Below are positions 5,917 to 26,828 of a stretch of 64,000 bases of DNA, one piece after another. This DNA comes from Mucor racemosus (lineage: Eukaryota; Mucoromycota; Mucoromycetes; Mucorales; Mucoraceae): contig JAPEHQ010000015.1 in the NCBI GenBank assembly GCA_027405735.1, positions 744,001 through 808,000 of the forward strand. Reading direction: 5' to 3'. The first letter of the stretch is position 1; each line of letters begins with the position of its first letter. Position numbers and translations under genes: made by a program. Under the pieces are notes generated by a model. The model was not told where the DNA came from. It did no database searches and saw only the letters and a program-made list of their open reading frames with translations.

Positions 5917-6044
5917 GTCCGACCTGTGCTGCACAAGATGATTTCGTTGTGCCCAGGTGGGCTGCACACTATAGCCTGATGAGTTGTTGCGCCCACTGAA
6001 TAATGGCTAAAAAGATAACAAGATGCAGACTGGCACAACAAAAA

Positions 6045-6265
6045 AGAAACTGCACACGAGCATAACGAGAAGCCTGCATGTGCAGAATTATAGAATCTGT
6101 CCATGTGCATGACATTAATCCCGTGTGTGCATAATAGTAGAATTACCCATAAGCATATCATTATCCCTATTTGTGCATAATAAGAAATCTGACCATGAGC
6201 ATAATGAGCTGATCGTATGGGCACAAATTGATTGTTTGTACATGAGCATCATCGTGCTGTTCTCA
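6045..6265. repeat. Array of degenerate ~20-26 bp subterminal repeats in arm A
   Basis: About nine units share a core like (C)CATGTGCATAA or its GAGCATAA variant, each followed by an AT-rich filler such as TAGAATTA. Cores occur near 6056, 6076, 6103, 6124, 6150, 6171, 6194, 6216 and 6240, so spacing is roughly 20-26 bp. The mirrored copy lies at about 22125-22345 in arm B. Clustered subterminal repeats are known as transposase-binding regions in several DNA transposon families; that role here is inferred. Confidence 0.55.
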
Positions 6266-8076
6266 AAATTCCATTGCATTTTTTTACTGCAATGGGGTTT
6301 TAAATTATATTTGCTTTTATTTAATTAATTATATAGATTATAGACAATACAATTCAATAGGTTGTTGATGTAGTAGAGTAATACATTCAACTAACAGTCA
6401 ATATATTTACGATTATCATTATTTGTAAATATGTTTGTAGCTGTAATATTTGCAGCAACAGTAGTTTTTGCTTGGACATAAACTTAAATGGCACTTACTG
6501 CTTAAATTTATACCGTAAGACAAATCTAAGATTATAAATGTTACTTTATCACTCATAAAATTTAAACAAACCAACCTTCTTTAAACTTACTATTATTTTA
6601 GTTTACGATTGTCAGCTGTAAAAAAATTTGTTTTCAGGTACAGTATATATACAATCAAAACTATGGTAATTAGGCAAGACATTAGATTGTTCTTTTTTTT
6701 TTTGTGTTTCTATCTATATCATTTGAAATTTTATCACTTTCTTGGAACATTTCGTGAGTTTGTAGCCAGTTCTAGCTTCTCATTAAATAGATATAAATAT
6801 CATTGCCTTCGATTTTTTGATCTGGTAATCAAGAAATATGTCCAAAAATACAGTAGTAAATAATGACATTTGATTTTAAAATGCAATTAAATGAAAATAT
6901 CAGTCTCTAATGTAACGACTGCTACCTAATATTAAAAACATTAGTCCCTTATGTTAGCATGCGTATTCAAATAAAAGATAAAAGAATATCAGCTTGATAG
7001 TCTGATATGCCTTATCAAACGGTGAATAATATCCTTTTTGGAATATGAAAACAAAAAGAGAGAAACAACACACGTAGAAGAGGATTTTCAAGGCTTTACA
7101 TTATTATTTAGCGCATTTAAAGCTCTGCTAAATTGCACATTTCAGCCAATGTAAAAGCAGCATCATTACAGCGCCTGGACTATAAACTAAGTAAAATAGG
7201 CAATATCTGTTACTATAATAGAAATATACATTTTTCTATCAGAAAAACCGTCTGTCATACCATAGATTTATTAAAAAATTGCAAAAGCAAACCCATAGAG
7301 CAACACCGTAATTGAGCATAGCAAGATTGAATGGCTAATTAAGTCTCTTATACTATGGTATATATCTAAGTTTTAAATAAAAAAGCGGTTTTTTTAAACT
7401 TTTCTTATATTTAGCCACGTATGGTCTGAAAATTCAGACTTTGTAGCGGACATTTTCGAGGATCATTTTATCCTTACCAACACTCATGATTTTGATCAAA
7501 AAATAGAAAAATCAAATTTTGATACGAAAATCAACGTTTAAATATACTACATTGTGAGAGGAAATTGTAGCCATGACTAATACACATTTTATAAAAGCTT
7601 AATATTAAATGTTAAGTAATGAAATTTAGCATTTTTGGCCCAAAAACGGTTCTTTGATTAAAGGATTTTCATCTAATATTTTGCAATAAAACGGGTTGTT
7701 ATTTTTTATTGAACAAATAGAGCGCTAAATTCTGTATATGTGTATATTTTTTGTTTTTATAATTGGTAGTATAATTCACTCTAGATTTGCAAAATCAGAA
7801 AAAAAAAATTAAAAAATGTCAAAATTGATAATCTGGACAAAAATAATTTTTAAAATTAATATTCCGCTTATAAGCTTTGTAAGTCTTAAAAATAAGAGAT
7901 TTTATAATACTTGAGAACTTTTTTAAGGATTTTTTACGATGCTGTACCCACTTGATTCAAGCTTATTACTGTAAACCTTTATACATATCAATATTGTGTG
8001 GTAGTTTATTTGATGATAATATAGTCTTACTTTATAATTATTGCGCTAGAGATAATCTACATTGAGTTTAAGTCTT

Positions 8077-8300
8077 ACCTCTCCAATATCATAAATATAA
8101 ACGTGGCCTTCACTGGAACTTATTGCCACCTTTTTGCCGTCTGTGTCCCAAGCCAATTTATTCAATGCTTTACCACAATCAACTTAAGCACTTACAAATT
8201 GTTCCTCGATATTTGCATTCAAATTCCATAAATTAAAGTAACTGGTTCCATTTACAGTAGTATCAAACGTATTATCATCAGCTCGCCTTATGATAAATGT
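8077..8300 (-). pseudogene. Dynein intermediate chain WD40 fragment (arm A copy)
   Basis: On the minus strand this encodes a piece resembling the last WD40 blade of cytoplasmic dynein intermediate chain: a YFNLWNLNANIEE block, an in-frame TAA, then GKALNKLAWDTDGKKVAI, SSEGHVYIYDIGE, ending at a GTAAGA splice-donor-like sequence. About 70 residues of a protein normally over 600 aa are present, so it cannot be functional. The retained donor suggests capture from genomic DNA rather than from cDNA. An identical fragment sits in arm B (13575-13795, plus strand). Confidence 0.75.
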
Positions 8301-8650
8301 CAATCTAAACTTAGAAATATGCCACTGTCATTGTTATACAGTAAGCTATGAAAAGCTTGATTTTTAATAATACAGCAATTAAATAAAAAAACAAGATAAT
8401 ACTAATAGCATATGGTGAGTATTTAAGATTTAAGTAAGTTTGATGAAGTATGCTTTTGAACCCTTTTAAAAATCCTGAAGCAAACACAATGCCTTGGTCC
8501 TGTAATTTCTATCCATCAAAATGGTGCAATTCCCGCTACAGCACAATGAATACACCTTTTATTTATCTTGACCTCTTTGTACATTGCTGGGTACCAGCTT
8601 TTTACCATTTTTATTTTCTCTAATTCATTAATATCCAGTCATATTGAAGG

Positions 8651-9211
8651 GTGATTTGCAGCACTGCCAAAAGAAAAGAATGAATGCTTCAAGAGTTTTG
8701 TACATATCAAATTATTTGATTTAGTAGCAATTATTGCATTTAACTATAATTTTTGAACTTAATGATGTTAATCAAAATTATTAGTACTTTCGTTTAAAAG
8801 AAGCAAACTTTGATTTATACATTTACATTCACCCATTCAATAAATGACATTGCATTTATTATCCGTTATATCAATCAATTAACTCTCTCTTGATTCGATA
8901 CATCGTTTGGCAATTAAATGCCTAAATTACACTTAAGCCACCAGCCAAGTATCACTAGAAAAAAATCTCATACAGGTAGACAAAGCATCACAATTTGGAT
9001 CATTTTTTTGTGTTCATAGATCTGATGATTTCTCTCTTACATTCATATATCTCTGCATGAACCATATTTCTGTCTGTTTAATTTAACTGAAATACATTGA
9101 ACACCAACATCGTACTTAATGAAATACCTTACTTTATTGTGAGTCAACACAACTAATTTGATGCTACTAGTTTAGCATCAGCAGTTGAATCAGATAAATT
9201 TGAGATTAGAC
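8651..9211. other. Spacer of the inverted repeat, left part
   Basis: AT-rich, no homology to arm B was noticed beyond 8650, no gene-like reading frame. It ends at the gaccc target duplication of the solo LTR. Confidence 0.5.
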
Positions 9212-9216
9212 GACCC

Positions 9217-9948
9217 TGCAGTAAATTACGATGTTATTTACTAAAATAAAAAAAATATAAAAATAAAAGCAGTAGAAATACAATTATAATCAGCTAAAGT
9301 TTTTATTACAAAAGATTTCTGAAGAGTTAAAATAATTGAAAAGTATGAGGGTATTTATAGTGATTTGGAGAACTTGGATACCATCAGACTTGAATGGATG
9401 TATATTTAGTAATCTTCCAGTTTTGAGTACATTGTTATTGATTTAATATTTTAAGGGGTAAATTGTGTAGAGCATTGACCATAAGGGATTGTATGTCAAG
9501 TGTGACAATATCGACCTTTTGGGAAATGGTTGTTTTTGTTTATTTCTGTTATATCTATTTTATGTAACCTTGATTTTTAAGGGGTAGTTTTTATATGCTT
9601 GAATCTTATTTATATTGATAGTGCAACTACGATATAGATGAGTAGTTGACTAAATTGATATCTTTGTTTATTATCATTATTGATTTGGATAGAATCCTGT
9701 TTTGATATACAGTATATGTCATTTGTGTAATTGATTGCGCCGTGATCAAGGGTGCTATTATCTACACGACATGTATGGTTCAAAAAGGGTATTTCATATT
9801 TTTAGCATGCGTTTGTTATTGTGTTCAATTGAAGCGTTTGTTTATTATCGTTGTTCACATTTCAAATGGCATCATATTTTATGAGCGACACTTGAAATTT
9901 AGGTTGTTTTATTTTTATCAAGCGTTTTTAGTATGTAATTCCACTGCA
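9217..9948. mobile_element. Solo LTR (family L1), 732 bp
   Basis: Begins TGCAGTAAATTAC and ends GTAATTCCACTGCA, giving TG...CA ends with a 14-bp imperfect inverted terminus, and is flanked by a 5-bp duplication gaccc (9212-9216 and 9949-9953). A second copy lies inverted at 43160-43887 with a different duplication (attgt). TG...CA ends, 5-bp TSD and no coding internal region fit a solo LTR left by LTR-LTR recombination. A short open frame inside (9742-9960) is shared with the other copy but is not a recognised protein. Confidence 0.8.
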
Positions 9949-10134
9949 GACCCCTTTTAATACTTTGCATATCATGAGCTAACAATTGACCGTTTTTACT
10001 TATTATAGATACGCTAAACAAGGATGTTGAATCAACTCTAATGGACGAACGAGTCGATTAGCAGTATAAACAAAATATTAAATTCAAATATAGCAATTGA
10101 ATGAGCAAGAGATTATAAACCATTTAAATTAGTA

Positions 10135-10346
10135 CAGTGAGTCGCAAAACCCTTTCAATGATTTGGAAATTTGAATGAAAATAATCATAACTTTCTCAGT
10201 TTCAATCGGAGATACACTAAATTTTTATTTTAAGTAATTCAAACGTTTTTAAATTATTTTCAAAAAGTCCGATCTAATTAATTAAAGTTCCGCGAAAACT
10301 ATGCAAGTTTAAAAAAAGGTACATCATTGAAAGGGTTTTGCACGCA
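10135..10346 (+). repeat. Left TIR of the Tc1-like element
   Basis: About 212 bp, reverse complement of 11561-11771. Carries the 19-bp motif at both of its ends in opposite orientation. Confidence 0.9.
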
Positions 10347-10494
10347 CAGGCTTAAAATTACAATTTTGTAACCCCTAACTTGTACATTAACGCTGGATAT
10401 CTCATAAAACAGAGAAATATGCGAAAAATATATAAGATGTTTTTCAACTTTTACCCTGCCTTTTTTACTAGTAGTTTCAAGCAAAATCATCAAG

Positions 10495-11524
10495 ATGAAA
10501 ACTGTATCGGATGCCAAACGTAATGACGTTATCTCTCTGTTAAATTCAGGCCATACCGTATCGGAAATTGCTCGTCATGTAGCTGTTAGTCAAGCCACAG
10601 TATGTCTTATTGGAAAAAAGGCCTGTCCTGACCGAGAAAAACCTAAAGGAGACCGACCATCTAAGCTGACTACTGCGGATATGAGATATTGTGTCCATAA
10701 AATCACCAAAGGTGGCTTGGATAATGCGGTACAAGCCAAAAAAGAGCTTCATCGTAATGTACACGTTAATGGCAGTGCGAATACTGTACTAGGGCTCTTC
10801 GGGATAATGGGTTAGGCGCATTACCTAAGATAAAAAAGCCAGAAATTAGTGATGAAAATGCAAAGGATCGCCTCCGCTGATGTAAAAACAGAATTGATTG
10901 GAATTTGGATGACTGAAAGCGTGTTATATCTACTGATGAGGCTAGAATTAATCGTTTTAACTCGGATTATTGAATTTGGTGCTGGAAAAGAGACAGCGAG
11001 GAGATAAAACTTAAGCATACCAAAAAACAAGAAAAAATGGAGATGGTCGAATCATGATTTGGAGCTCTATTTCTTGGTCTGGTGTCATTTGGTTGTCCAA
11101 GGTCGAAGGTAATATGAACTCCAATCTATACAGAACTATTATTGATGATGATTTGGAAAAATCCATTGACGATATGTGTCAAAAATTGAAGTTGCGTCGT
11201 AATTAGGTTATCCTTCAACAAGACAACGATTCTAAGCACACCTCTAATTTAATGAAAGAAGACTTCAAAACAAAAAAATATGAAGTAATGTCATGGCCAG
11301 CGTAATTTCCAGACCTTAATCCCATTGAAAATATGTGGAGGTTATTGAAAATCCGTCTAAACGAATACGATACATCCCCAAAAGGGATGAATGATATTTG
11401 GGACAGAACTCAAGAGATTTGGTATGACAACGTAACAGTTGGGGAATATCAAAAAGTTATTTCGAGTATGCCTCATTGTGTGAAAGCTTGTATTAAAGCA
11501 AAAGGTTATGGTATTGATTATTGA
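10495..11524 (+). pseudogene. Tc1-family transposase, inactivated
   Basis: Starts with MKTVSDAKRNDVISLLNSG, a helix-turn-helix/paired-like DNA-binding start (HTVSEIARHVAVSQATV, residues about 19-36). The catalytic part is recoverable only across frames: ISTDEARINRF holds the first Asp, LQQDNDSKHTS the second, and DLNPIENMWRLLK the Glu, with 34 residues between the second Asp and the Glu (DD34E, Tc1 type). Two frameshifts are visible, near 10786 and in the A-rich stretch about 11020-11037. Five in-frame stops follow: TGA at 10878, 10914, 10971, TAG at 11204 and TAA at 11303. Four of these fall where the family has Trp. No functional protein can be made. Confidence 0.9.
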
Positions 11525-11560
11525 CTGCATTTAAATAAGCTTCAATTTTTTTTTGATAAT

Positions 11561-11771
11561 GTGTGCAAAACCCTTTCAATGATGTACCTTTTTTTAAACT
11601 TGCATAGTTTTCGCGGAACTTTAATTAATTAGATCGGACTTTTTGAAAATAATTTAAAAACGTTTGAATTACTTAAAATAAAAATTTAGTGTATCTCCGA
11701 TTGAAACTGAAAAAGTTATGGTTATTTTCATTCAAATTTCCAAATCATTGAAAGGGTTTTGCGACTCACTG
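11561..11771 (-). repeat. Right TIR of the Tc1-like element
   Basis: About 211 bp, reverse complement of the left TIR, ending at GCGACTCACTG next to the TA duplication. Confidence 0.9.
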
Positions 11772-11773
11772 TA

Positions 11774-12740
11774 TAATTGAATTGCTTCAAGCGCTTTGAG
11801 CTGAATACGCCTTTATTTTTGGCCTATGAAAATTGATTTATTAGCAAAATTAATTAACAAATTAATAAGTAATGATTATGATGTACTTTTGATAGTTGGT
11901 AGTAGTATAATGAAGGCAGCATCTTGTTTTCCTCTTCTTAGTTAGTTGTTGGCCACTAAATAGAAACAAATATTTTTTAGAAACTAAATAAATTAACATG
12001 AGTTATTTATTCATTTAAATCAAGCCAATACTATACATACTTTTATAATCACCAATTTTTCTGCAGGTAGTAGGTTTCGACTATAGACGAAAAAAGCATT
12101 GATTATAACGTAGATGATGGAACAAAATGACTAAGTGTTGGATGCTTTTTTTTTGTTTGAGAAAAATATTATAACGCGCCTTAACATTATTAATAGCTAA
12201 TAATTTATTTCCAAATAGACAGTAGGAAAAACATGTAATTATACCTGCTGCTTGATTTCAGTTTATAAAAGATCTTGGTCTTTTTGTTGTAGTTTTAAAC
12301 ATAAAGAAAAGAGCTGAGGAAAGTGTGGAAGAAAAAAGAAAAATAATCGTAGTAAATCAGTCGGTTTTATGTGTTACAAACAGAAATTTACAAAGGCATA
12401 AATACTTTTGTCAAACAGGTTGTTGTCGTTATTCCCATTTGATCTCAAAAGAAGAACATGGGCAGAACTCTTTCAAACCCCAAATTTCTAATTAATATAT
12501 CTCGTCAATAAGGCAATTCTGTTGAATCCGAATAACTCAAGCCTGCTTTAAATCACTCAGATTATCTTCGTTATTGATTATATTATGATTGATATACTTT
12601 AGTAAATTGATTAAAAAACTTTGATCTCATTGCTCTGCTCCGCTGGGCTGCCTGATCTGCATTAAAGTTTTTATTCTGCCCATCTGTGCAGATTAGTATG
12701 TTCATGGGAAGCATAATTCGGCCGTAATGAACTGATTAAT
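11774..12740. other. Spacer of the inverted repeat, right part
   Basis: About 970 bp of AT-rich sequence between the Tc1-like element and the R2 fragment. No open frame of note, no terminal repeats. Confidence 0.5.
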
Positions 12741-13178
12741 AAAAACAAGATTTCATTTATTTAGATATAAAAGTATGGCCTTTTATATTGATTTGACATT
12801 GAGATCTTGAGATGTAATTTAAGGTATTATATTAAGCCATTGGATCTGTTCGATGGTAATCTATGGATTGAAATGGATCAATCATGATTTAACCGTGCTT
12901 GCAGAATTTGTGAATTGCCTTGTTTCAATGCTGCGCTAAATGCGCTTGGATGTGGATTTGATAGCTACTTGATTGATTAACCGCTGGGATGAAATGATGT
13001 GGTGTCATAATTGAGGTCCAGGCATTCTTGGTTCTTGGTAATTACTGGATTAAACTTAGTACGCTAGGAGCTTCTTATATCCGATATCAAGATTTTGCAC
13101 TTCAATACATGTCGTAGTAGTCAATAAATTGTAAGATGTATTGATACTGTAGAAGGTGATAACGTATGATACTAGGTG
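12741..13178 (-). repeat. Dispersed repeat R2, partial copy (reverse)
   Basis: Reverse complement aligns with 27140-27580 and 53730-54165. Landmarks read on the minus strand: GTTATCACCTTCTACAG, TGATATCGGATATAAG, CAGCGGTTAATCAATC, CAATATAAAAGGCC, then a TAAATAAA-type polyA signal and CTTGTTTTTATTA. TATAAAAGG followed about 25 bp later by AATAAA resembles the promoter and polyA signal arrangement of an LTR; this is an inference, since no TSD was found. Confidence 0.65.
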
Positions 13179-13224
13179 AAATACAGCAATTATACTCATA
13201 ACTTGTAATTTAATACATTATCGT

Positions 13225-15301
13225 TCAATATGACCAAATATTAATGAAGCAGAGAAAATAAAACTAGTAAAAAGCTAGTACCCAGCAATGTACAAAGAAG
13301 TCGAGATTGATAAAAGGTGCATTCATGTGTGCTGGAAATCGCGACATTTTGATGGATAGAAATTACAGGACCAAGGCATTGTGTTTGCTTCAGGATTTTT
13401 AAAAGGGTTCAAAAGCATACTTCATCAAACTTACTTAAATCTTAAATACTCACCATATGCTATTAGTATTATCTTGTTTTTTTATTTAATTGCTGTATTA
13501 TTAAAAATCAAGCTTTTCATAGCTTACTGTATAACAATGACAGTGGCATATTTCTAAGTTTAGATTGACATTTATCATAAGGCGAGCTGATGATAATACG
13601 TTTGATACTACTGTAAATGGAACCAGTTACTTTAATTTATGGAATTTGAATGCAAATATCGAGGAACAATTTGTAAGTGCTTAAGTTGATTGTGGTAAAG
13701 CATTGAATAAATTGGCTTGGGACACAGACGGCAAAAAGGTGGCAATAAGTTCCAGTGAAGGCCACGTTTATATTTATGATATTGGAGAGGTAAGACTTAA
13801 ACTCAATGTAGATTATCTCTAGCGCAATAATTATAAAGTAAGACTATATTATCATCAAATAAACTACCACACAATATTGATATGTATAAAGGTTTACAGT
13901 AATAAGCTTGAATCAAGTGGGTACAGCATCGTAAAAAATCCTTAAAAAAGTTCTCAAGTATTATAAAATCTCTTATTTTTAAGACTTACAAAGCTTATAA
14001 GCGGAATATTAATTTTAAAAATTATTTTTGTCCAGATTATCAATTTTGACATTTTTTAATTTTTTTTTTCTGATTTTGCAAATCTAGAGTGAATTATACT
14101 ACCAATTATAAAAACAAAAAATATACACATATACAGAATTTAGCGCTCTATTTGTTCAATAAAAAATAACAACCCGTTTTATTGCAAAATATTAGATGAA
14201 AATCCTTTAATCAAAGAACCGTTTTTGGGCCAAAAATGCTAAATTTCATTACTTAACATTTAATATTAAGCTTTTATAAAATGTGTATTAGTCATGGCTA
14301 CAATTTCCTCTCACAATGTAGTATATTTAAACGTTGATTTTCGTATCAAAATTTGATTTTTCTATTTTTTGATCAAAATCATGAGTGTTGGTAAGGATAA
14401 AATGATCCTCGAAAATGTCCGCTACAAAGTCTGAATTTTCAGACCATACGTGGCTAAATATAAGAAAAGTTTAAAAAAACCGCTTTTTTATTTAAAACTT
14501 AGATATATACCATAGTATAAGAGACTTAATTAGCCATTCAATCTTGCTATGCTCAATTACGGTGTTGCTCTATGGGTTTGCTTTTGCAATTTTTTAATAA
14601 ATCTATGGTATGACAGACGGTTTTTCTGATAGAAAAATGTATATTTCTATTATAGTAACAGATATTGCCTATTTTACTTAGTTTATAGTCCAGGCGCTGT
14701 AATGATGCTGCTTTTACATTGGCTGAAATGTGCAATTTAGCAGAGCTTTAAATGCGCTAAATAATAATGTAAAGCCTTGAAAATCCTCTTCTACGTGTGT
14801 TGTTTCTCTCTTTTTGTTTTCATATTCCAAAAAGGATATTATTCACCGTTTGATAAGGCATATCAGACTATCAAGCTGATATTCTTTTATCTTTTATTTG
14901 AATACGCATGCTAACATAAGGGACTAATGTTTTTAATATTAGGTAGCAGTCGTTACATTAGAGACTGATATTTTCATTTAATTGCATTTTAAAATCAAAT
15001 GTCATTATTTACTACTGTATTTTTGGACATATTTCTTGATTACCAGATCAAAAAATCGAAGGCAATGATATTTATATCTATTTAATGAGAAGCTAGAACT
15101 GGCTACAAACTCACGAAATGTTCCAAGAAAGTGATAAAATTTCAAATGATATAGATAGAAACACAAAAAAAAAAAAGAACAATCTAATGTCTTGCCTAAT
15201 TACCATAGTTTTGATTGTATATATACTGTACCTGAAAACAAATTTTTTTACAGCTGACAATCGTAAACTAAAATAATAGTAAGTTTAAAGAAGGTTGGTT
15301 T
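13225..15301 (-). repeat. Long inverted repeat, arm B, inner segment
   Basis: Reverse complement of arm A from about 8650 down to 6572. The match is near-perfect from 13352 outward; the innermost about 130 bp show many substitutions. It is interrupted at 15301 by the Ty3/gypsy element and resumes at 21803. It contains the plus-strand copy of the dynein intermediate chain fragment. Confidence 0.88.
13575..13795 (+). pseudogene. Dynein intermediate chain WD40 fragment (arm B copy)
   Basis: Plus-strand twin of the fragment in arm A. Reading in frame gives ADDNTFDTTVNGTSYFNLW, then NLNANIEEQFVSA, TAA at 13682-13684, VDCGKALNKLAWDTDGKKVA and SSEGHVYIYDIGE, followed at once by GTAAGA. This resembles the final WD repeat of cytoplasmic dynein intermediate chain, where a KALN-x-x-W and a YD(V/I)GE ending are characteristic. 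A possible acceptor AG precedes the fragment near 13580, so one exon with its flanking splice signals may have been captured. The single in-frame stop and the lack of the rest of the gene make it a pseudogene. Confidence 0.75.
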
Positions 15302-15963: not shown

Positions 15964-15999
15964 TTTTTTACAGTTTACATCAATTATTGATTCTACCTT

Positions 16000-18900
16000 A
16001 TGTCTTCTATCGCCTCTGATTCTCCCTTGTCTCCCGAGCAACCTTTGTCTCCTGAACCCTTGGAGGAGTCTTTATTACCTTCTACTGCCATGTCGGTTGC
16101 TACTGAGAAGCTGAAGGACATGGAAATCTCTCCTCCTCCTCCTACCGTAGATGAAGAAGATAAGCTTAGTACTACATCTGATCAAGAGATCTTGGAAGAT
16201 GCTCGCCCTCCTGCACCTGTTTCTCACAAAGAAATTTTGAAAAGAACTTTGCAAAAAAAGGAAAAAGTAAAGAAGGACTACCTTGAAGCAATGTGTAATT
16301 TGGAAACTGTTGCAGGGAATAAGAAAGCGAATGAACTTCGGGAAGTCTTATCAAACTTGGAATTGCACATCAAGACTTTGACCGCAGGTCTCAAGGCTAC
16401 AAACTCAACAAGTAAATTGGCAATCTCTTCTGGGCTTAAGATTAGCAAAAGGGACCTCCCAAAGTTCCAGTTGGAGGATAGTAAGAGCAAGCCTTTTCCT
16501 CAAGAAGAAGTTTACAAATCCGTTGATCACTTTTTAGGTGAATTTGAAAAAATTGTTTATTCGTCTGGGCAAGACATAAACGATGTATGGAAAAAATATA
16601 TTCCTTTAACCCTGCCTTATGATCTTGACGACTGGATGAAGACAGTGGTCCTCAAATGTGTCTCTTGGTTGGAGGTCAAGTCCGTCTTTGCTAAGAAATT
16701 TGGCACTGTAATTTCCAAATTACACAAGAAGAGAGCCGTCATGACCATGGCTATTGAAGATGATGAAACGTTGGATGAATATTCCATTCGATTTTTCCGT
16801 ACCGCAGGGGAAGCTGGCTACCATCGAGAAGACTCAACACTTGGAGATATCTTTCTACTTAGTCTTCCTGATGAGTGGCAGCTTAATATCTCAACTGTCT
16901 TGTTGTCGCGTACCAACCAGCAAGGATGGACTCCTTCAGAAATCTCAACTGTTGCTCTCAATTTACTTGGAGAAAGAACGCCAGGTTCCTGGAATACCAG
17001 CCGTAAGTCAAGCAATCCTCCGTTGAAACGAAAGTTTCACTCTGAGAAGTCTGTCGCTGCTTCTGTGTCTTCTGGTGTGGATCTCACCTCTGAGTTGCCT
17101 AAAGCAAGGATGTTGGGGGAGAAAAATAGGCCAAACCGCGCTACCAAGAACCCTGCTCCTTGCCGCCATTGCGGTCGTACTTGGCGCCATGGCCACACTT
17201 GTGAAGAATATCATGCTGCCAAGAAGCAAAAGTCTGCTTCTGTTTCCGTTTTGTCGGTCTCTTCTGCTTCTAAAAGTGAAGGAAATGAAAATGAAAATTT
17301 AGAAAATAGTATCAAGGAAATTTATGAAAATGGAGCATATCCTTGTAAGTCGAAAAAGACAAACAATAACAATAATATGAAACTAATAACACCTTTACTA
17401 TTAAATAATAGGAGAGTAATTGGCAAAGTTGATCCTGGCTCTGATATTAGTTTTATAAATATTAAAATTTTAAATAAAGATTTCTCATCTATTAAAACAA
17501 TCAAGACAAATGGTTACCTAAATTTCCTTTCAGTAAATGATAATAAACAAAACAGCTCTGTAACTAGAGTTGGTAAAACTGAGCCAATGGAAGTTACGTA
17601 CACAAATAACATTAAATTTAAACATGAATTTGAGGTAATCGAATTTAATGATGAATTGTCAACTGAATTTGATGTCCTTCTTGGTATCGACATTCTCCCA
17701 AAATTAAATATCTATCTGAGTGGTGTAGCCTTTAAATGGCCTGATTCAGATAGAGAAAATGAATTGAAACAATTTGAAGACATAAATCATGATCCTGAAA
17801 ATACGTTTAACCCTGAAAAAGCAGATTATGGGACGCCAAGCGAAAGAAAGGAATTATTAGCTTTAATTCAACCAGCTTTGGAAAAAAACATTGCCATTCC
17901 TAGTGATTCTGCTTGTACTATGCCTGAATCAGTTGTAAAAATAAAAATAACAAATCCTAGCAATTGCTTTGTTCGTCAATACCCCTTAGCTGTTAATGCA
18001 AATGCCGAAATCAAGATACAACTGGAACAATGGTTGAAAGATGGAATTGTTGAAATAACAAAACCTGATCCTACTTTCCATTCGCCTTTACTAGCTGTAC
18101 CCAAACGTGATCCAGTTACTGGAAAACAAACCAAATTAAGAATTTGTTGTGATTTGAGAAGAATCAACGCAGCAATATCTGACAATGATTGTCATGAAAA
18201 CTTTGCCATTCCAAAAATTCAGGAAATATTTGGTAGAGTATCAGGTCGTGCTAATATAATAAGTGTTTTAGACCTAAAACAAGCGTATTTTGCATACCCT
18301 GTGTCACCTGAATCGAGACGTTGCCTCATATTTAGTCATAATAATATTACATATCAATGGACTCGTGCACCTTTCGGATTGAAATTTCTAGTAAGCCAGT
18401 TCGTTTATAATATGTCAGTTTTATTCAATGGCATTGAACAAGAACTGAGAAATGAAGTAAAAAAAGTATATGTCAAAGAAAATAAAGATATTAGCAAAAT
18501 TGACAGTGAATTCCAAGGTAGTCTGGAGCATTATGTCGATGATATTGTTCTCTTTTCTAAAGATGTACAAACACAAATTATCCTTATAAATTTAGTTGTA
18601 AATCGACTAACAAAAGTAAACCTCAGAATCAATATTGACAAGTGCTCTTTCTTCCAAACAAGTGTTTATTTGCTTGGCTTTGTAATCAGTAGAAATGTCA
18701 CCAAAATTGATACCAGAAAATTATCTAACATTGATTCTTGGGAAATCCCAAAAACAACAAAACAAGTACGAAGCATCATGGGCATTATTTCTCACTTACG
18801 AGATTATTGTCCCATGTTGTCAAAGGTAGCTGCCCCAATTGATAGTCTACGAAACGAAAAAGACATCAAAAAGAAATGGACCCCGTTGCATACAGATCGA

Positions 18901-20931
18901 CTCGAAAGAATAAAACAAATCTTAATGTCTAATCAAATTTTATATGCACCTGAACCATCGCAACCGTATTATTTACAAACTGATGCAAGTGTACTTGGCA
19001 TTTCGGCTTGTCTATTTCAAAAAGATGAGTTTGATCGAATCAAACATATTGCATTTGCAAGTAGATCTCTTAATAGTGCAGAAAGAAATTGGTCGACTAA
19101 TAGGAGAGAAACTGCTGCCATTGTATATGGTTTCCAAAAGTATAAACCCTTACTATGGGGACACAATAATATAACTGTACTTTGTGATCACTTAGCCCTT
19201 ACCTATTTGTTCACGTCGTCTACTCTAAATAGTACACTTCAAAGTTACTTGGAAATATTGGGTGAATTCAATTTCTCGGTATCACATATCAAAGGTATGG
19301 AAAATATCTTAGCTGATCGATTATCGAGATTGTACCCTGCCATTACTGAAGACGAAGAACTTGCTGATGAGCATGACCAGCAAATAAAAAAATTAGAAAA
19401 ATTGATCCTGTTACGAAGAGCAAAAGGAGGAAACCAAGTTATAAAACAAAAGAAGGTGTACTCCAAGGATAAAAATCTAAATGTGCTTGCCGTCAAGATT
19501 AATAGTAAAGAATTTAAGGAAGCAACCACTGACTACATTTGCCCACCTGAAAGTGATAGAATCCAAATAATTAAAGATGCGCATAAATTTGGCCATTTTG
19601 GAATATCAGCTTGTGTAAAGCAAATTCAAACATATCATGGGCTGCACTGGAATTCTATATATAAAGATGTAAAAGAGGTGTTGTTGTCGTGTAAAGAGTG
19701 TGCAATGCATAATATAACCAAGAAAGGATTTAATCCATTGAAGAGTGTCGTATCGTATGAACCTTTTGAATTTATAGGACTCGACATGATTGGACCCTTA
19801 CCCGTATCTGGGAAAGGAAATTGCTATATCTTGGTTGTGGTTGATATTTGCACAAAATATATTATCGCTCGCCCAGCACCGAATAAACAAAGTGATACAA
19901 TTGCTTCCTTGCTACTATCCATTTTTTCTGATTACGGTTGTAGTGTAAATGTCATTGTCAGCGATAATGCCCGCGAATTTCGCAATTCCTTGTCGTCTTA
20001 TATCAATAAAGCATTAAATATTGATATGGTCTTTAGTACACCTTATTACCCCCAAGGGAATGGCCATAGCGAAAATGCGGTGAAAATAGTCATAAATACC
20101 CTACGAAAAATGTGCGGAAATGACACATACAATTGGGATGATCGCTTACCTGTTGCTCAGTTGGTAATCAACATGAAAGTAAGAGACAGGACTGCAAGCA
20201 CTCCATTTTCCCTAATGTACGCTCGACAAGTGAACATTGACCCCAAAAGAAAAAATAGAAACAATCGAAAAGCATTAACACTTGAAGAATTGCAAAAACG
20301 TGCAGAAATCATGAATGACATTGTTTTTCCTGCTATACAACAACGCACATTAGAATTAGCAAAGTTGTACAGCGATAAATTTAACAAAAAACATTATATA
20401 CTTGAAAATATTCCCGTTGATACACCTGTAATGGTACGATTGGCGGAAGGACGTGCTAATAAATTAGCTCCAATGTATGCAGGACCCTATGTTATAGTAC
20501 GTCGCACCCAAGCAGGAAATTACGTTTTAAAAGACGATTCACATGAACTTCTCCATCGTGAATATACACCTTCTGAATTAAAAGTAGTTTCCCTTGATGA
20601 AACAGCTCTTGAAGAGAAAGTATACGACGTCGAGGAAATTCGCGACCACCGAACCTTATCAGATGGTACCACAGAATACTTGACTAAATGGAGTGGATAT
20701 GGTGAAAGAGAAAATGATTGGCTCACACCTGACTTGTTCTCCTCCCCCATCCCAATTTCAAATTACTGGAAGAAAATTAAGGATCTTCGTAACCGTGAAA
20801 CTTTACGTAAAAGAATCAATAATACTTCACCCAAAGATACTGAAATAGACTCTACAAATAATTCACGCAAAACTAAATCCTCATCAAATAGCACTTTCCG
20901 TCGCAACAAGCGTCCTAAAACTTCCAAGTAA
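16000..20931 (+). CDS. Gag-Pol polyprotein of the chromovirus (1643 aa)
   Basis: One frame with no Gag/Pol frameshift. Domains in order: Gag about 1-385 with a retrotransposon-gag region (YSIRFFRTAGEAGY, near 260-275). A zinc knuckle of type C388-X2-C391-X5-H397-X3-C401. A retropepsin-like protease at about 465-575, whose active site reads D478-P-G-S instead of D-S/T-G, with FDVLLGIDILP later. Reverse transcriptase about 650-900 with LDLKQAY and YVDD at 845-848. RNase H starting at D995 (TDAS). An integrase with H1195-X3-H1199...C1231-X2-C1234 and catalytic D1262, D1322, E1358 (59 and 35 residues between). A C-terminal chromodomain at about 1541-1597 (YDVEEI, YLTKWSGY, NDWLTP). Chromodomains of this class can guide integration to methylated histone H3; that is family knowledge. 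The start at 16000 is the first ATG after the LTR with a long frame. Confidence 0.96.
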   Translation: MSSIASDSPLSPEQPLSPEPLEESLLPSTAMSVATEKLKDMEISPPPPTVDEEDKLSTTSDQEILEDARPPAPVSHKEILKRTLQKKEKVKKDYLEAMCNLETVAGNKKANELREVLSNLELHIKTLTAGLKATNSTSKLAISSGLKISKRDLPKFQLEDSKSKPFPQEEVYKSVDHFLGEFEKIVYSSGQDINDVWKKYIPLTLPYDLDDWMKTVVLKCVSWLEVKSVFAKKFGTVISKLHKKRAVMTMAIEDDETLDEYSIRFFRTAGEAGYHREDSTLGDIFLLSLPDEWQLNISTVLLSRTNQQGWTPSEISTVALNLLGERTPGSWNTSRKSSNPPLKRKFHSEKSVAASVSSGVDLTSELPKARMLGEKNRPNRATKNPAPCRHCGRTWRHGHTCEEYHAAKKQKSASVSVLSVSSASKSEGNENENLENSIKEIYENGAYPCKSKKTNNNNNMKLITPLLLNNRRVIGKVDPGSDISFINIKILNKDFSSIKTIKTNGYLNFLSVNDNKQNSSVTRVGKTEPMEVTYTNNIKFKHEFEVIEFNDELSTEFDVLLGIDILPKLNIYLSGVAFKWPDSDRENELKQFEDINHDPENTFNPEKADYGTPSERKELLALIQPALEKNIAIPSDSACTMPESVVKIKITNPSNCFVRQYPLAVNANAEIKIQLEQWLKDGIVEITKPDPTFHSPLLAVPKRDPVTGKQTKLRICCDLRRINAAISDNDCHENFAIPKIQEIFGRVSGRANIISVLDLKQAYFAYPVSPESRRCLIFSHNNITYQWTRAPFGLKFLVSQFVYNMSVLFNGIEQELRNEVKKVYVKENKDISKIDSEFQGSLEHYVDDIVLFSKDVQTQIILINLVVNRLTKVNLRINIDKCSFFQTSVYLLGFVISRNVTKIDTRKLSNIDSWEIPKTTKQVRSIMGIISHLRDYCPMLSKVAAPIDSLRNEKDIKKKWTPLHTDRLERIKQILMSNQILYAPEPSQPYYLQTDASVLGISACLFQKDEFDRIKHIAFASRSLNSAERNWSTNRRETAAIVYGFQKYKPLLWGHNNITVLCDHLALTYLFTSSTLNSTLQSYLEILGEFNFSVSHIKGMENILADRLSRLYPAITEDEELADEHDQQIKKLEKLILLRRAKGGNQVIKQKKVYSKDKNLNVLAVKINSKEFKEATTDYICPPESDRIQIIKDAHKFGHFGISACVKQIQTYHGLHWNSIYKDVKEVLLSCKECAMHNITKKGFNPLKSVVSYEPFEFIGLDMIGPLPVSGKGNCYILVVVDICTKYIIARPAPNKQSDTIASLLLSIFSDYGCSVNVIVSDNAREFRNSLSSYINKALNIDMVFSTPYYPQGNGHSENAVKIVINTLRKMCGNDTYNWDDRLPVAQLVINMKVRDRTASTPFSLMYARQVNIDPKRKNRNNRKALTLEELQKRAEIMNDIVFPAIQQRTLELAKLYSDKFNKKHYILENIPVDTPVMVRLAEGRANKLAPMYAGPYVIVRRTQAGNYVLKDDSHELLHREYTPSELKVVSLDETALEEKVYDVEEIRDHRTLSDGTTEYLTKWSGYGERENDWLTPDLFSSPIPISNYWKKIKDLRNRETLRKRINNTSPKDTEIDSTNNSRKTKSSSNSTFRRNKRPKTSK

Positions 20932-20934
20932 ACG

Positions 20935-20966
<32 letters not shown>

Positions 20967-21135
20967 GTTGCAATACTCTTTCTACCTATATTATCAATCA
21001 AATAAACAACAAAACTACAAAAAAAAAAAAAAATATTTTTTACTACTCCAAACAATAACTTTATAAAGAAATAGTTTCTCCAAATGTCGAATCTTCGGGT
21101 CAACTCAATGCTTGATTGAGTTTAGCGGGGGGGCA
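20932..21135 (+). other. Internal 3' region of the chromovirus with polypurine tract
   Basis: Contains a long A tract directly after the stop codon (about 20937-20963), a second at 21019-21032, and the polypurine tract ending at 21135. The tract primes plus-strand synthesis in this class of element. Confidence 0.75.
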
Positions 21136-21797
21136 TGTGCTGAACTAGGATACTATTTCCCCACATAAGAAATTAAATGTTATCTCACATAAAACCATGC
21201 TCTAATATTTCAATAGAGATAACATGAATTTAACAGTAAATACAGAAAGTATTAGTAATTTAACATATAAATAAAATAGACCGAATCATAAACAAAGCAA
21301 ATTGATTCATAAAATAAGCTGAAGAAACACATAGATCAAAGTAAGGATTGCTCTATGCGGATCATTAACAAATATGCCAAAAACGGGCATTAAAAGACCG
21401 CCTTGATTATGTAAATCAAGAAGCTCAATATAAACTTTAAAATCACAAACAAACTAATTGATTTACCAAAAAGAATAAACATATGGATATTGCATGAAGA
21501 CAATGGAATCATGCTTCAATCATTTAATAAGTAGCATGATGATATATGTATGGAATGCAGCATTGTCTGATTCGCATGTTAAACATCACGGTTTGACAGA
21601 AGTCCTAAGTTGGTAATTCGGTTATTCCTAATTCTGATAGATCACTGACAGTTACGGTGCAACTCCCAGATATAACAAAAGCACAACTAATATAAATAGA
21701 GTAGAAATATAGACCTATTGCACACTATCTATTTTTTGAATAAAGAAGGATTTAAACTGTATCTTTTTTCAAAGCTTTTATTTTACATTTTACTGCA
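21136..21797 (+). repeat. Right LTR of the chromovirus
   Basis: 662 bp; no mismatch to the left LTR was noticed by eye. Followed by the ggttt duplication. Confidence 0.95.
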
Positions 21798-21802
21798 GGT
21801 TT

Positions 21803-22413
21803 GTTTAAATTTTATGAGTGATAAAGTAACATTTATAATCTTAGATTTGTCTTACGGTATAAATTTAAGCAGTAAGTGCCATTTAAGTTTATGTCCAAGC
21901 AAAAACTACTGTTGCTGCAAATATTACAGCTACAAACATATTTACAAATAATGATAATCGTAAATATATTGACTGTTAGTTGAATGTATTACTCTACTAC
22001 ATCAACAACCTATTGAATTGTATTGTCTATAATCTATATAATTAATTAAATAAAAGCAAATATAATTTAAAACCCCATTGCAGTAAAAAAATGCAATGGA
22101 ATTTTGAGAACAGCACGATGATGCTCATGTACAAACAATCAATTTGTGCCCATACGATCAGCTCATTATGCTCATGGTCAGATTTCTTATTATGCACAAA
22201 TAGGGATAATGATATGCTTATGGGTAATTCTACTATTATGCACACACGGGATTAATGTCATGCACATGGACAGATTCTATAATTCTGCACATGCAGGCTT
22301 CTCGTTATGCTCGTGTGCAGTTTCTTTTTTGTTGTGCCAGTCTGCATCTTGTTATCTTTTTAGCCATTATTCAGTGGGCACAACAACAGCTCAGTCTATA
22401 GTGTGCAGCCCAC
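21803..22413 (-). repeat. Long inverted repeat, arm B, outer segment
   Basis: Continues arm B after the chromovirus: reverse complement of arm A about 5957-6567. Includes the mirrored subterminal repeat array (about 22125-22345). It ends at cccac (22409-22413), the left target duplication of the next insertion, and resumes at 26717. Confidence 0.88.
22125..22345. repeat. Array of degenerate subterminal repeats in arm B
   Basis: Reverse complement of the array at 6045-6265, with cores such as TTATGCTCATG, TTATGCACA and TCATGCACATG at about 20-26 bp spacing. Confidence 0.55.
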
Positions 22414-22584
22414 TGTAATAGATCAATGGATTGTCAAACTGAATATATAATATAGAGGATTATATGTCTGACTTTGATTCTATGATTGGATATGAAAGGT
22501 TGGTGTTACTACTTGTAATTGCTATTACTAGTATACGATTATTACCTATGATTGATTATATGGAGTTATATAATAATTGGTTAT

Positions 22585-22923
22585 TGATGTATCATTCTTA
22601 AACCGGATCATGTCAAAATCCAAAAAAGTAAATAATAACAGATCCGGAACTGGAAGTTCCTTAATTAAATATTAACTATACAATGCTCCTAGAAGCATGG
22701 TATAGAAGCATGGTACAAAAGCATAATACGCCAGTGCGATATTCCAACGTGATATACCAGCATGACACATTACTATTAAATAACATCTAAACTACCTTAC
22801 CACACCATTAATTCCCCAAATCAAATAGTATATAAACCCTATTAATTTCATTCCAATAAACGATATCTCTTTACTTGATTAAATTTCTAATTTTATTTAA
22901 CCTAAACATATTTTGATAAATCA
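22585..22923 (+). repeat. Left LTR of the gag-only element
   Basis: 339 bp. Contains TATATAAACC near 22830 and CCAATAAACG near 22855 as likely promoter and polyA signal. One visible difference from the right LTR is attaaatatt against attaaacatt near 22675. Confidence 0.92.
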
Positions 22924-22974
22924 TTTTTTAATCACACAAGAACTCTTCGTTTATCTGGTTCTGAAACTTTCTAT

Positions 22975-24168
22975 ATGGCTCCCAATACAAGAAATTCGAG
23001 TCAATCGACTATCGGACGTAACGCTGGTCAAGCAGACAATTCCCCTTCTCAATCATCGACTTCCATACCTATGGATATAGATGAAGCTAATGAAAATGAT
23101 GATATTCGGGAGAATACATCTGACAATATTAACAATGATGTTCGGGAGAGCACGTTGAATATTAGTGGTGATGTTCGGGAGAACACACTAAACACTAGTA
23201 ATAATGATGATACTCGGGAGAGTACATCCAATAATAACTGGATGGACAGTATTCATGATAATACTACGACACCAGATTATTCATCTCATGTACCACTAGG
23301 TAACAATGAAGAAAATTTTAGTAATATTAACAACAAATTACTCACAAATTTAAAAGCAAACAGAAAATTTGCAACTTCTATTAATAGTGCAGGACGTTTA
23401 ACACTGATCAATGAAATTGAGAGATTAAATCTTGCAGTGTTCAGAGCTACCATTAATAATCTTGCTTGTCCCAAAGAATTAGTATCTGAAGCTATTCTTG
23501 AGGCCGTTATAGCAGATTTAAAAATAGCTAAAAAAGCCTATCAACTTATTTTTAGTGATGAAAGTACATTAGTACCCAGTGAAATACCATATTTTCAATG
23601 GAAAGGTCATCAGTTTCATAGGCGTCGTGTCATATTTGCAACGCCTACTGATTGTTTAGATCACTTTGAATTAGTAATGAATGCTTATCGTCTTTCAATT
23701 AATGATAATTGGGAAAGAATTGTACCTGCTAAATTGTCCACTGGAATGGCTAAATGGTACGCAAAGCTAATCAATAACAATGGTAGATTAACATGGAATG
23801 AATTCCGTGCAGCTGTTATAAATAAATATGGCAAATCAGTCAAAGATATGAAAGATGAAGCTAGAGAAAAGCTAGAGAGTTTATTATACGATAAAAATGG
23901 ATCTTTTACCAAATTCATAGAAAAGTTCCAAAAACTACGTTTTCAAGCGGGTATCCAAGACGAGGATTGTCTAATTCGATATCTAATCAAATCTTTGCCT
24001 AATAATTTAGCAAATCATACTAAGTTTTACTTAAACACAAACGAGGATAGAGAGTCTGTCACAATAGACTTAGTCATTACAAAAGTCAAAGCAATTTACA
24101 ATGCTCTTTTTAAAGACAAATGGAAAATGGAAAGAGCATCTTACTCAACCCCAAACGGTTTTCAATAA
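22975..24168 (+). CDS. Gag-like protein of the non-autonomous LTR element (397 aa)
   Basis: Residues about 43-88 are an acidic, Asn-rich low-complexity tract made of four imperfect 11-13 residue repeats with core D-(I/V/T)-R-E-(N/S)-T (coding 23101-23240). Residues about 110-190 are helical. The segment KWYAKLINN, LTWNEFRAAVINKYG and the following FIEKFQKLRFQAG match the retrotransposon-gag family pattern (about 260-325). There is no CCHC knuckle and no Pol. The frame is intact, which suggests either recent insertion or a maintained capsid function. It ends at TAA 24166-24168 with only non-coding DNA after it. Confidence 0.82.
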   Translation: MAPNTRNSSQSTIGRNAGQADNSPSQSSTSIPMDIDEANENDDIRENTSDNINNDVRESTLNISGDVRENTLNTSNNDDTRESTSNNNWMDSIHDNTTTPDYSSHVPLGNNEENFSNINNKLLTNLKANRKFATSINSAGRLTLINEIERLNLAVFRATINNLACPKELVSEAILEAVIADLKIAKKAYQLIFSDESTLVPSEIPYFQWKGHQFHRRRVIFATPTDCLDHFELVMNAYRLSINDNWERIVPAKLSTGMAKWYAKLINNNGRLTWNEFRAAVINKYGKSVKDMKDEAREKLESLLYDKNGSFTKFIEKFQKLRFQAGIQDEDCLIRYLIKSLPNNLANHTKFYLNTNEDRESVTIDLVITKVKAIYNALFKDKWKMERASYSTPNGFQ

Positions 24169-26201
24169 CAACAATGACAGTATCAGCCACAAAAAAAGCG
24201 TAAACCTATACACATTTTCAATTTAGCCTATATATATACTAGATATAAATAAACAATTTACAGTTTTAAATTAGTAAACAAGTTGTAAAAAAAGAAAGAA
24301 AATGTTAATAAAAATCGGATTTACTGCAAATAATATCGAAATTCCTCTTAAAATCACATCAATATATACTGATTTTTATTTGAGATATTAACATCTCCAG
24401 TATCATTGATGTAATTGGTATGGTTAAATTATATAAAAAATAGATATTGCTAGATTACTAGCCACAACAATAACAAAAAAATACATCACATATAGCATTG
24501 ATCATTTTCAAAACAAAAGCTAGCCTTACGATCGTGCTTAACTTATAATCAATATTAGCTCAAAAGAGCAATTCTAAACTTTGTCTATCACAAACAAGGA
24601 TTATCCTTGATTTTACCAAGTTCATAACGTTTAATTTTGGAACCATTGGTTGCCAACAGAAAAGAACTTACATATCATTTTGGTATTACCATTTTGAGAT
24701 ATTTTATTTGTTATGTCGCTGAATTCACGACTTTACAATGTCATTCACAATACATCTCATATTAATAGTATCCTGACAAAAGAAAATCTCATCATATTTA
24801 CCAAATTACAGCGTTCATTCGTTAATCCCATCTTTCAGCTACAAATTTACACAAAATAGCCTTTGTTTCAATATTAAATCACAAGTACCTGATCAATGCT
24901 TGCCCGTATTTAGTATTTATTACACATGTCTTATTTTGGTTTCGTTGCTCCTCAACTTTCCTCTACTGGAAGACGTTATGGCCTTGCCTAGCGTGAGCTT
25001 TAAGCAGTAGTAGTATATGCTTTTATAGAATTTTCATAGATTATGCGTTAAAAAAGTGTCATATATTCCTGAATAATCGTGGCCAATTGTACCCGAATTC
25101 TTAAACAGAACACATTTGCACATTGAAAATACTTACGAAATTTAAATTTAACGTACTTTGAATGCTATCATCATCATACATACTAGTAATGTTGATAATA
25201 TTCTCGCTGATTACACAATTTATCGCATCTTTGCACGTGGTACAAAGAGGCTGAGGGGGAGTGGTACTCTAGCTATAAAAGCTACAGCTATAACGTGAAC
25301 AATTAATTCAAATTGAATTTATAAACATGATAGACCATAGCAATTAAATAATACGGCAATGTTGATGTATATAATTGCCAAAAACATCATTATTTCTGAA
25401 AACAATAGTGGCATTAGCAACACAAACATTTATAACAGCATAAGAAGCACAAAACAATAGTAGTAGAAATAACATTATATTCATAAATACAAATGATACA
25501 ATAATAGCAGTAAATAATGATAATGGCATAGCAAAAAAGCAAATGCATAGTTAGCTTAACAGATCAACATAAATCTGATGTTAAACGCAAGACAGAAGAA
25601 AAAATTACCTACTTGCTTAAACATATATAGCCATTCGAAGGTTAAGAAGTAAGGATAAAAAACTAAAACAAACATACATAACATAGCAGTAATTACCAAT
25701 AGCAATCATTCTTACATGATAGTTATTCAAACATATGTATCATATTTATTATGATGTAGATTGTACAAAACTTAATTCAAACGCTTACATGATAAGTACC
25801 ACAATCAGCAATCTGACTGATTTCAATACAAAAGAAATCTTTTAAATATATTAGTGGTCAAAGGAAGGTTCTATTAAACAATTTATACATTGATAGACAA
25901 ACTAAAACCACGATTCAGCAAGAAAGTTAATCTGCCTTTTCCTTGAAAAGTACATTTAATATTTTTTCCATACATACATCAGTATATTTGGTTTTTTCTA
26001 ATGTATAGAGGTTTTTACTGGCGATTCAAACAACTATCAATTCAACAACTTCACATCAATATATCAAGACACAATTTTACTTTTCTTTTCTTTTTCTTTT
26101 TTTTCACGGTTTATCACTCAACATCACGAACACTTATCAAGAGGTGCAATTTCTATGGTTTCCGCTAACAAACATACTGTTTCCAAGCTGGTGCGGGGTA
26201 A
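24169..26201 (+). other. Two-kilobase non-coding interior of the gag-only element
   Basis: AT-rich, stops in every frame, no Pol motif found on either strand. The last bases form the presumed polypurine tract before the right LTR. Function, if any, may be packaging or dimerisation RNA; this is speculation. Confidence 0.7.
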
Positions 26202-26540
26202 TGATGTATCATTCTTAAACCGGATCATGTCAAAATCCAAAAAAGTAAATAATAACAGATCCGGAACTGGAAGTTCCTTAATTAAACATTAACTATACAA
26301 TGCTCCTAGAAGCATGGTATAGAAGCATGGTACAAAAGCATAATACGCCAGTGCGATATTCCAACGTGATATACCAGCATGACACATTACTATTAAATAA
26401 CATCTAAACTACCTTACCACACCATTAATTCCCCATATCAAATAGTATATAAACCCTATTAATTTCATTCCAATAAACGATATCTCTTTACTTGATTAAA
26501 TTTCTAATTTCATTTAACCTAAACATATTTTGATAAATCA
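26202..26540 (+). repeat. Right LTR of the gag-only element
   Basis: 339 bp, followed by the gttat duplication at 26541-26545. Confidence 0.92.
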
Positions 26541-26716
26541 GTTATAAGTAACAATGATAAATAAGTAATAATATATATTTATTTGGATTGTGGTTATAAA
26601 TATAATAAGAGGAAAGGAAAGAACAGATAAATTCACTAATGTGCAATTGATCCGTTCTTGGTTGTTATTTATATGTGTAATTTGCTTATGTAATGTAACT
26701 GGATCATTATACCCAC

Positions 26717-26756
26717 CTGGGCACAACGAAATCATCTTGTGCAGCACAAGTCGACC
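26717..26756 (-). repeat. Long inverted repeat, arm B, outermost stub
   Basis: Reads ctgggcacaacgaaatcatc and on to gcagcacaag; its reverse complement matches arm A about 5917-5956. Homology ends near tcgaccg, giving the outer limit of the inverted repeat. Confidence 0.8.
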
Positions 26757-26828
26757 GTAGTGCTTTTGTATATAAATCCTTTAAATTTGTGATTTTATAG
26801 ACTTTTTTTGAATCCAGTTGTATCACCT

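What the first reader, a model, noticed from the sequence alone, without database searches (positions are those of the whole stretch)
5917..26756. 20-kb inverted-repeat structure with a readable insertion history
Arms of about 2.7 kb face each other across a 4.6-kb spacer. Arm A is uninterrupted; arm B carries a full chromovirus (TSD ggttt), a 337-bp solo-LTR-like element (TSD cccac) and, inside that, a gag-only LTR element (TSD gttat). Arm A holds the empty sites (aaacc at 6568-6572, gtggg at 5957-5961), so the order of events is fixed. What made the arms is unclear: a transposon with giant TIRs or an inverted duplication.
Basis: seen in the sequence. Interest (0 to 1): 0.75.

Follow-up and report, generated by a model that had tools for sequence, protein, structure and literature searches.

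The report
Inverted transposon copies made identical
Two neighbouring copies of a fungal jumping gene that face each other have had their middle 2.5 kb copied from one onto the other, a natural case of sequence copying between mirror-image repeats, and several other mirror-image pairs in the same genome look alike.

Summary
The inverted structure and its nested insertions are real. The arms are neither giant terminal repeats of one transposon nor a plain inverted duplication. They are two different copies of one repeat family with CACTA-type ends (CACTACGGCCGA). Arm A is the left part of a complete copy, 5911-12729, with target duplication AAC, inserted in a 540-bp repeat. Arm B is an inverted copy of another structural subtype, truncated where it meets that repeat. 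From 5991 to 8523 the arms show no substitution in 2,533 bp. Beside it, at 8524-8648, they are 83.5% identical: A groups with subtype-1 copies, B with subtype-2 copies. Other scored copies are 81-92% identical to the arms. An identical block between two otherwise diverged copies is the mark of gene conversion, or templated copying, between inverted repeats. A second locus (C2) with the same junctions has arms 99.4% identical to each other but only about 84-87% to these. Of 14 inverted neighbour pairs measured, 10 exceed the family background, against 1 of 5 direct pairs: a lead only (Fisher p = 0.11). The host is a Mucorales-like fungus. Mechanism, direction and selective meaning are not shown.

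The parts
5911..12729 (+). Copy A: complete CACTA-type element, subtype 1 (ends CTCTGCGTCCGA / TCGGCCGTAATG), carrying two later insertions
5908..5910 (+). target-site duplication AAC, left
12730..12732 (+). target-site duplication AAC, right
5827..5910 (+). left part of repeat Y (about 540 bp, TGTYG...CAACA) into which A inserted
   Evidence: 15 alignments in the held sequence run across this site without interruption, two of them elsewhere in the window; ends
12733..13188 (+). right part of repeat Y; abuts B at 13188/13189
4470..5821 (+). repeat X2, contiguous with Y here and at some other loci
5991..8523 (+). homogenised block in arm A: no substitution against B in 2,533 bp, one 1-bp indel at 6692
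13345..15301 (-). homogenised block in arm B, inner part
21798..22379 (-). homogenised block in arm B, outer part
8524..8648 (+). edge region of A, subtype 1: 17 substitutions plus indels against B; 83.5% identical in the multiple alignment
13189..13344 (-). edge region of B, subtype 2, with the subtype-2 stretch 13189-13223
22380..22413 (-). outer edge of B: 5 substitutions within 16 bp (5975-5990 in A)
26717..26762 (-). outermost 46 bp of B with the CACTACGGTCG end; 5 substitutions against A at 5912-5924, then identical
22414..22584 (+). 337-bp element, left half (TSD CCCAC)
26546..26711 (+). 337-bp element, right half
22585..26540 (+). gag-only LTR element (TSD GTTAT; gag match PF03732); LTRs differ by 6 substitutions in 348 columns
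9217..9948 (-). 732-bp repeat inserted in A, about 96-98% alike between copies seen
10130..11778 (+). Tc1/mariner-like element inserted in A (class by my reading): 220-bp inverted ends, broken frame, weak HTH match below its cut-off

Best explanation
Two members of an abundant CACTA-type transposon family, of different structural subtypes, came to lie in opposite orientation about 4.6 kb apart. Later about 2.5 kb of one was copied onto the other by non-allelic gene conversion between the inverted repeats. Shown: two subtypes, a complete copy A with its own target duplication, an identical block bounded by diverged homologous edges, and near-identity at several other inverted pairs. Inferred: homologous recombination as the mechanism, the donor, and that any excess in inverted over direct pairs arises because crossing-over between direct copies deletes one of them.
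For: Dispersed family: 40 candidates scored; over an 830-bp stretch 29 copies have best matches of 89.1-92.9% outside their own locus partner, star-like in the tree. A/B: 0 substitutions in 5991-8523, then 17 in 8524-8648 and 10 in 5911-5990 (17/125 against 0/2521, p = 1e-23). In 8524-8648, 14 of 15 other subtype-1 copies are closer to A and 8 of 8 subtype-2 copies closer to B (my split by the sequence that follows; one duplicate row dropped). C2 locus L033 shares the A|Y and Y|B junctions; its arms are 99.4% identical over 830 bp but about 84-87% identical to the window's. L013: 99.9% over 1,274 bp although its two arms continue as different subtypes. Within-locus inverted partners are sisters in the tree (L018, C22, L033, L013 with support 1.0; for the window pair no support value was printed). 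C10 pair: 400 bp with 0 mismatches inside an alignment of 93.6%.
Against: One assembly only: near-identical inverted arms can be artificially merged, and reads were not available. The outer edge is patchy: 5 substitutions at 5912-5924, none in 5925-5974, 5 at 5975-5990; part could be a local mutation cluster. C10 and C22 share insertion sites in both arms, so there an inverted duplication is the source of the pair. Four inverted pairs are at background or near it (two in L023 at 86.1 and 88.3%, C1:1.17 Mb 90.0%, C4 19 kb apart 92%), and one direct pair (C4, 9 kb apart) is at 95%.
Confidence: 0.82

Rival explanations
1. Replication-based template switching (a fork switching between the inverted copies) copied the segment, without a double-strand-break repair event.
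For: Also yields an identical block with edges inside homology; inverted repeats favour fork switching (established knowledge, recalled).
Against: I saw no extra inserted bases at the block edges in the alignment, but did not test for microhomology; the data do not separate the two.
Confidence: 0.25
2. Local inverted duplication of one CACTA-type copy, with later insertions.
For: Arms are far more alike than any other scored copies. At C10 and C22 both arms share the flank of the right element end, so such duplications do occur in this genome.
Against: A and B are of different subtypes next to the identical block and have different outer flanks; identity drops from 100% to 83.5% inside homologous DNA.
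Confidence: 0.08
3. One transposon of about 20 kb with giant terminal inverted repeats.
For: Other loci hold paired inverted arms.
Against: No common target duplication outside the arms (AAC against CTT); A alone is complete with its own duplication in Y; many fetched loci show a single arm; spacers differ in length and content, with what look like host genes at C10 and C22 (gene names by look, not searched).
Confidence: 0.03
4. Assembly artefact: reads of two moderately different arms were merged to one consensus.
For: No reads could be checked; the sequencing platform is unknown.
Against: Copies of the family mostly differ by about 8-19%, hard to merge; edges and insertions are resolved; the pattern appears at several loci with different degrees of identity (93.6-100%).
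Confidence: 0.06

Closest known systems
Palindrome arm-to-arm gene conversion on mammalian sex chromosomes (PMC8981503, abstract read)
   Same: Inverted copies close together on one chromosome are kept more than 99% identical by gene conversion.
   Different: Here the arms are transposon copies of different subtypes that came together by insertion, not duplicated genes; the block is 2.5 kb and the host is a fungus.
CACTA (En/Spm) superfamily and the TRC elements of animals and fungi (PMC1636069, abstract read)
   Same: CACTA ends, inverted terminal repeats, a 3-bp target duplication in the one clear case (that feature of the superfamily recalled), repeated motifs near the left end.
   Different: No Transposase_21 match lies in the window; only two broken ones were found in the genome and their link to this family is not shown.
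Recombination between Ty1 retrotransposon copies in yeast (PMC9879454, seen in search listing only)
   Same: Recombination between dispersed transposon copies in a fungus.
   Different: That paper uses induced breaks in a retrotransposon, by its listing; here a natural block between two inverted copies with CACTA-type ends.
Ectopic recombination between inverted repeats of insertion sequences in Wolbachia (PMC3004938, abstract read)
   Same: Inverted transposon repeats recombine in nature.
   Different: That work reports inversions between terminal repeats of one element; here a conversion block between two separate copies.

Membership tests
CACTA / EnSpm transposon | terminal inverted repeat beginning CACTA | tested here: met
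   Left ends CACTACGGCCG without mismatch at 9 places and right ends at 5 places in the held loci; in the window A's ends are mutated (8 of 12 positions agree), B's left end is CACTACGGTCG.
CACTA / EnSpm transposon | 3-bp target-site duplication | tested here: inconclusive
   AAC/AAC for A with uninterrupted Y elsewhere; the only other copy for which one search shows both ends, L011, has AGC against TTG.
CACTA / EnSpm transposon | subterminal repeats | tested here: inconclusive
   46-bp tandem units at 6079-6204; two typed motifs hit only in the left 600 bp, not in the right 600 bp.
CACTA / EnSpm transposon | Transposase_21 coding region | tested here: not met
   Genome-wide PF02992 search: 2 matches, both with stops, neither in the window. 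Filed as CACTA-type by its ends, presumably non-autonomous, not as a proven member.
Plavaka (fungal CMC group) | Plavaka transposase PF18759 in the genome | tested here: inconclusive
   No match in this genome, but none in the 14 controls either.
Giant-TIR transposon | one target duplication outside both arms | tested here: not met
   AAC left of 5911, CTT right of 26762.
Gene-conversion tract | identical block flanked by diverged homologous sequence on both sides | tested here: met
   the outer edge is weaker and patchier than the inner edge.
Palindrome-type arm homogenisation | arms more alike than paralogous copies, recurrent | tested here: met
   10 of 14 inverted pairs above 92.9% identity, the highest background value; two of the ten (C10, C22) began as duplications.
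Palindrome-type arm homogenisation | conversion seen between generations or strains | not testable with these tools
   one genome, no reads, no relatives held

The most novel reading that the evidence does not exclude
In this fungal genome nearby transposon copies in opposite orientation are regularly homogenised by gene conversion, while direct neighbours are not, so that chance insertions of a dispersed family turn into self-maintaining pseudo-palindromes, some flanking host genes. Such pairs could also be hairpin-RNA sources that silence the family (no evidence for this last step).
Probability: 0.35. Interest if true: 0.6.

Novelty: new member of a known kind. Interest (0 to 1): 0.4.

Why it matters
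Gene conversion between inverted repeats is best known for sex-chromosome palindromes. Here a dispersed transposon family offers many inverted and direct pairs at different distances, with a family background as clock, in one small fungal genome. That would let one measure how orientation, distance and length control ectopic conversion. It also warns that the similarity of neighbouring transposon copies is no guide to their age.

Tried and rejected
Giant-TIR element and plain inverted duplication were tested and rejected for the window (see rivals). My early idea that the segment 11774-12729 in inverted pairs marked a large cargo transposon was dropped: at C10 and C22 it lies in arms that flank different gene-like interiors. 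I took repeat Y for the end of subtype 2; it is better read as a separate high-copy repeat that often sits beside or inside these elements; its class was not settled. I first read the Y|B junction in L013 as the same as in the window; it is not. Typed motifs for subterminal repeats gave nothing at the right end. The Plavaka search was uninformative. Host identity: the RuvB-like 2 fragment's closest matches (up to 100%) are unnamed and the nearest named ones are Rhizopus, 89 and 87%; size and composition fit Phycomyces by recall only, so the species stays open. Inverted neighbours seen in match lists but not measured: C1:3.61/3.63 Mb, C4:2.557/2.572 Mb, C5:824/848 kb and pairs of the right-end segment on C22 (355/377 kb), C3, C6 and C8; a direct one, C6:749/765 kb, was not measured either. 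Literature: PMC10294615 and PMC9879454 were seen in listings only.
Full report
What is there. The window is a 64-kb stretch of contig C15 in a 53.2-Mb genome of 54 contigs. A fragment of a RuvB-like 2 gene in it has Rhizopus proteins as nearest named relatives (89 and 87%; closer matches are unnamed), so the host is a Mucorales-like fungus; the species is not determined.

The arms are a dispersed family. The arm sequence 6000-8520 gave 59 matches from 40 scored candidates (of 2,785 in the first look), 81-92% identical apart from the window's own two arms. In 20 loci fetched around these hits, copies run from a common left end to either of two different interiors. Subtype 1 runs 5913-9216, 9950-10132, 11774-12729; the pieces between are later insertions. 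Subtype 2 shares 5913-8648, then a different stretch (13189-13223 in B) and in several loci about 890 bp more that the window lacks. The left end reads CACTACGGCCGACC and the right end, reversed, CACTACGGCCGAAC. A is a complete subtype-1 copy, 5911-12729, flanked by AAC on both sides and inserted into repeat Y; 15 alignments in the held sequence run across this site in Y without interruption. Only one other copy shows both ends (L011) and its flanks do not agree (AGC, TTG), so the 3-bp duplication rests on one case. A genome-wide Transposase_21 search found two broken matches, none in the window. I therefore call the family CACTA-type by its ends.

The arms are not equally similar along their length. 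Between 5991 and 8523 there is no substitution and one 1-bp indel in a T run. At 8524-8648 there are 17 substitutions plus indels, 83.5% identity in the multiple alignment, as low as between unrelated members of the family there (75-89%). At the outer side, 5912-5924 has 5 substitutions, 5925-5974 none, and 5975-5990 another 5. In the edge 8524-8648, 14 of 15 other subtype-1 copies are nearer to A, and 8 of 8 subtype-2 copies nearer to B (24 non-window rows, one of them a duplicate of the same L015 copy, dropped; several margins are under 1 point, and the exception is an L013 arm, itself part of a homogenised pair). So A and B are different members of the family that share a recently copied middle. 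That speaks against a plain inverted duplication and against a single element with giant TIRs.

The same happens elsewhere. In the 830-bp stretch 7357-8186, 29 copies were compared. Apart from within-locus inverted partners, no copy has a relative above 92.9%. Inverted partners reach 100 (window), 100 (L013), 99.5 (L033), 97.5 (C22) and 95.7 (L018); the L023 pair is at 89.6. Self-comparison added L009 (99.6 over 781 bp) and L026 (97.0 over 799 bp), and the C10 pair reaches 93.6 over about 3,836 columns with a 400-bp mismatch-free patch. From match coordinates I then picked three more inverted pairs and fetched 501 bp of each arm: C11 100%, C1:64-68 kb 95.0%, C1:1.17 Mb 90.0%. The match scores were visible when I chose them, so the choice was not fully blind. 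One search gives one more, C4:2.616/2.637 Mb, 92% at 19 kb. Taking one value per pair (longest stretch), 10 of 14 inverted pairs exceed 92.9%; the four that do not are two in L023 (86.1, 88.3), C1:1.17 Mb and C4. Flanking stretches of some pairs are lower (L018 77-78%, L026 88%, C22 91 and 83%). Direct neighbours: C23 88%, C21 88%, C4 95%, L023 85.5% over 525 bp and L025 85.7% over 223 bp: 1 of 5. Fisher p = 0.11, Mann-Whitney p = 0.012; without the window and L033 (chosen by its junction) 8 of 12, p = 0.13 and 0.020; without C22 and C10 too, 6 of 10, p = 0.28 and 0.027. C22 and C10 were chosen as inverted pairs and their two arms share the flank of the right element end, so they began as inverted duplications; their interiors look like host genes (by look). 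Short repeats such as Y are not homogenised in inverted pairs (85-90%), while an X2 pair at L010 is (99.3% over 1,550 bp). The orientation effect is therefore a lead, not a result.

A second copy of the arrangement. L033 on contig C2 has the same A|Y junction and the same Y|B junction, 87.4% identical to the window across 2.7 kb, yet its own arms are 99.4% identical over 830 bp. Its left arm lacks the outer end and part of the interior. If both junctions are inherited from one ancestor, each locus was homogenised separately after they parted.

Order of events. The gag-only LTRs differ by 6 substitutions in 348 columns and those of the full LTR element by 2 in about 676; the block has 0 in 2,521 compared positions. 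The gag-only insertion is thus older than the last homogenisation (p = 3e-6) and lies about 30 bp outside the block. For the full LTR element the comparison is weak (p = 0.045). If it is older too, the conversion passed around a 6.5-kb insert. This assumes that LTRs are identical at insertion and mutate like the arms.

Mechanism. Non-allelic gene conversion between inverted repeats explains the block, its edges and the near-identity at other loci. Fork template switching would leave the same trace, and the data do not separate them. Direction of copying is not resolved. Gene conversion in palindromes is well known (PMC8981503, abstract read; others seen in the listing). Recombination between transposon copies in fungi is also known (Ty1, PMC9879454, listing). 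My searches (20 of 62 listed, 15 of 19, 12 of 14, 5 of 5) listed no paper that, by title or start of abstract, reports homogenisation of inverted DNA-transposon pairs in a fungus; that is a limited library and a limited look.

Verdict. It is a clear natural conversion-type block in a transposon pair, a known kind of event, with a lead worth a genome-wide test.

Noticed in passing
window 7950-8420, minus strand (best 8079-8165): The arms carry a piece of a dynein intermediate chain gene (best match E 2e-5; other WD-repeat proteins match nearly as well) with stops in frame: a captured host-gene fragment spread with the transposon family.
   Followed up: partly
G000:C10 about 34.5-56.4 kb and C22 about 558.4-577.5 kb (L029-L036): Inverted arms of 3-4 kb made of CACTA-type plus other repeats flank 12-14 kb with long open frames that look like host genes (by look: sortilin-like, kelch, transporter at C10; subtilisin-like and lipase-like at C22), both arms sharing the same insertion site.
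   Followed up: partly
window 5822-13188 (Y, split), 27152-27665, 53716-54256: Repeat Y, about 540 bp, TGTYG...CAACA, is very abundant (1,958 first-look candidates) and often hosts or abuts the CACTA-type copies.
   Followed up: partly
L023:3264-7166: A CACTA-type copy lies between two Y copies with CACAT on the inner sides, as if a Y-interrupted element had been rearranged.
   Followed up: no
L010:1990-3535 and 8352-9901: An inverted pair including repeat X2, 99.3% identical, frames a single subtype-1 copy; the pattern is not limited to the CACTA-type family.
   Followed up: no
G000:C11:984907-985326 and C1:1433883-1434302: The only two Transposase_21 matches found in the genome, both with stops: possible remains of an autonomous partner.
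   Followed up: no
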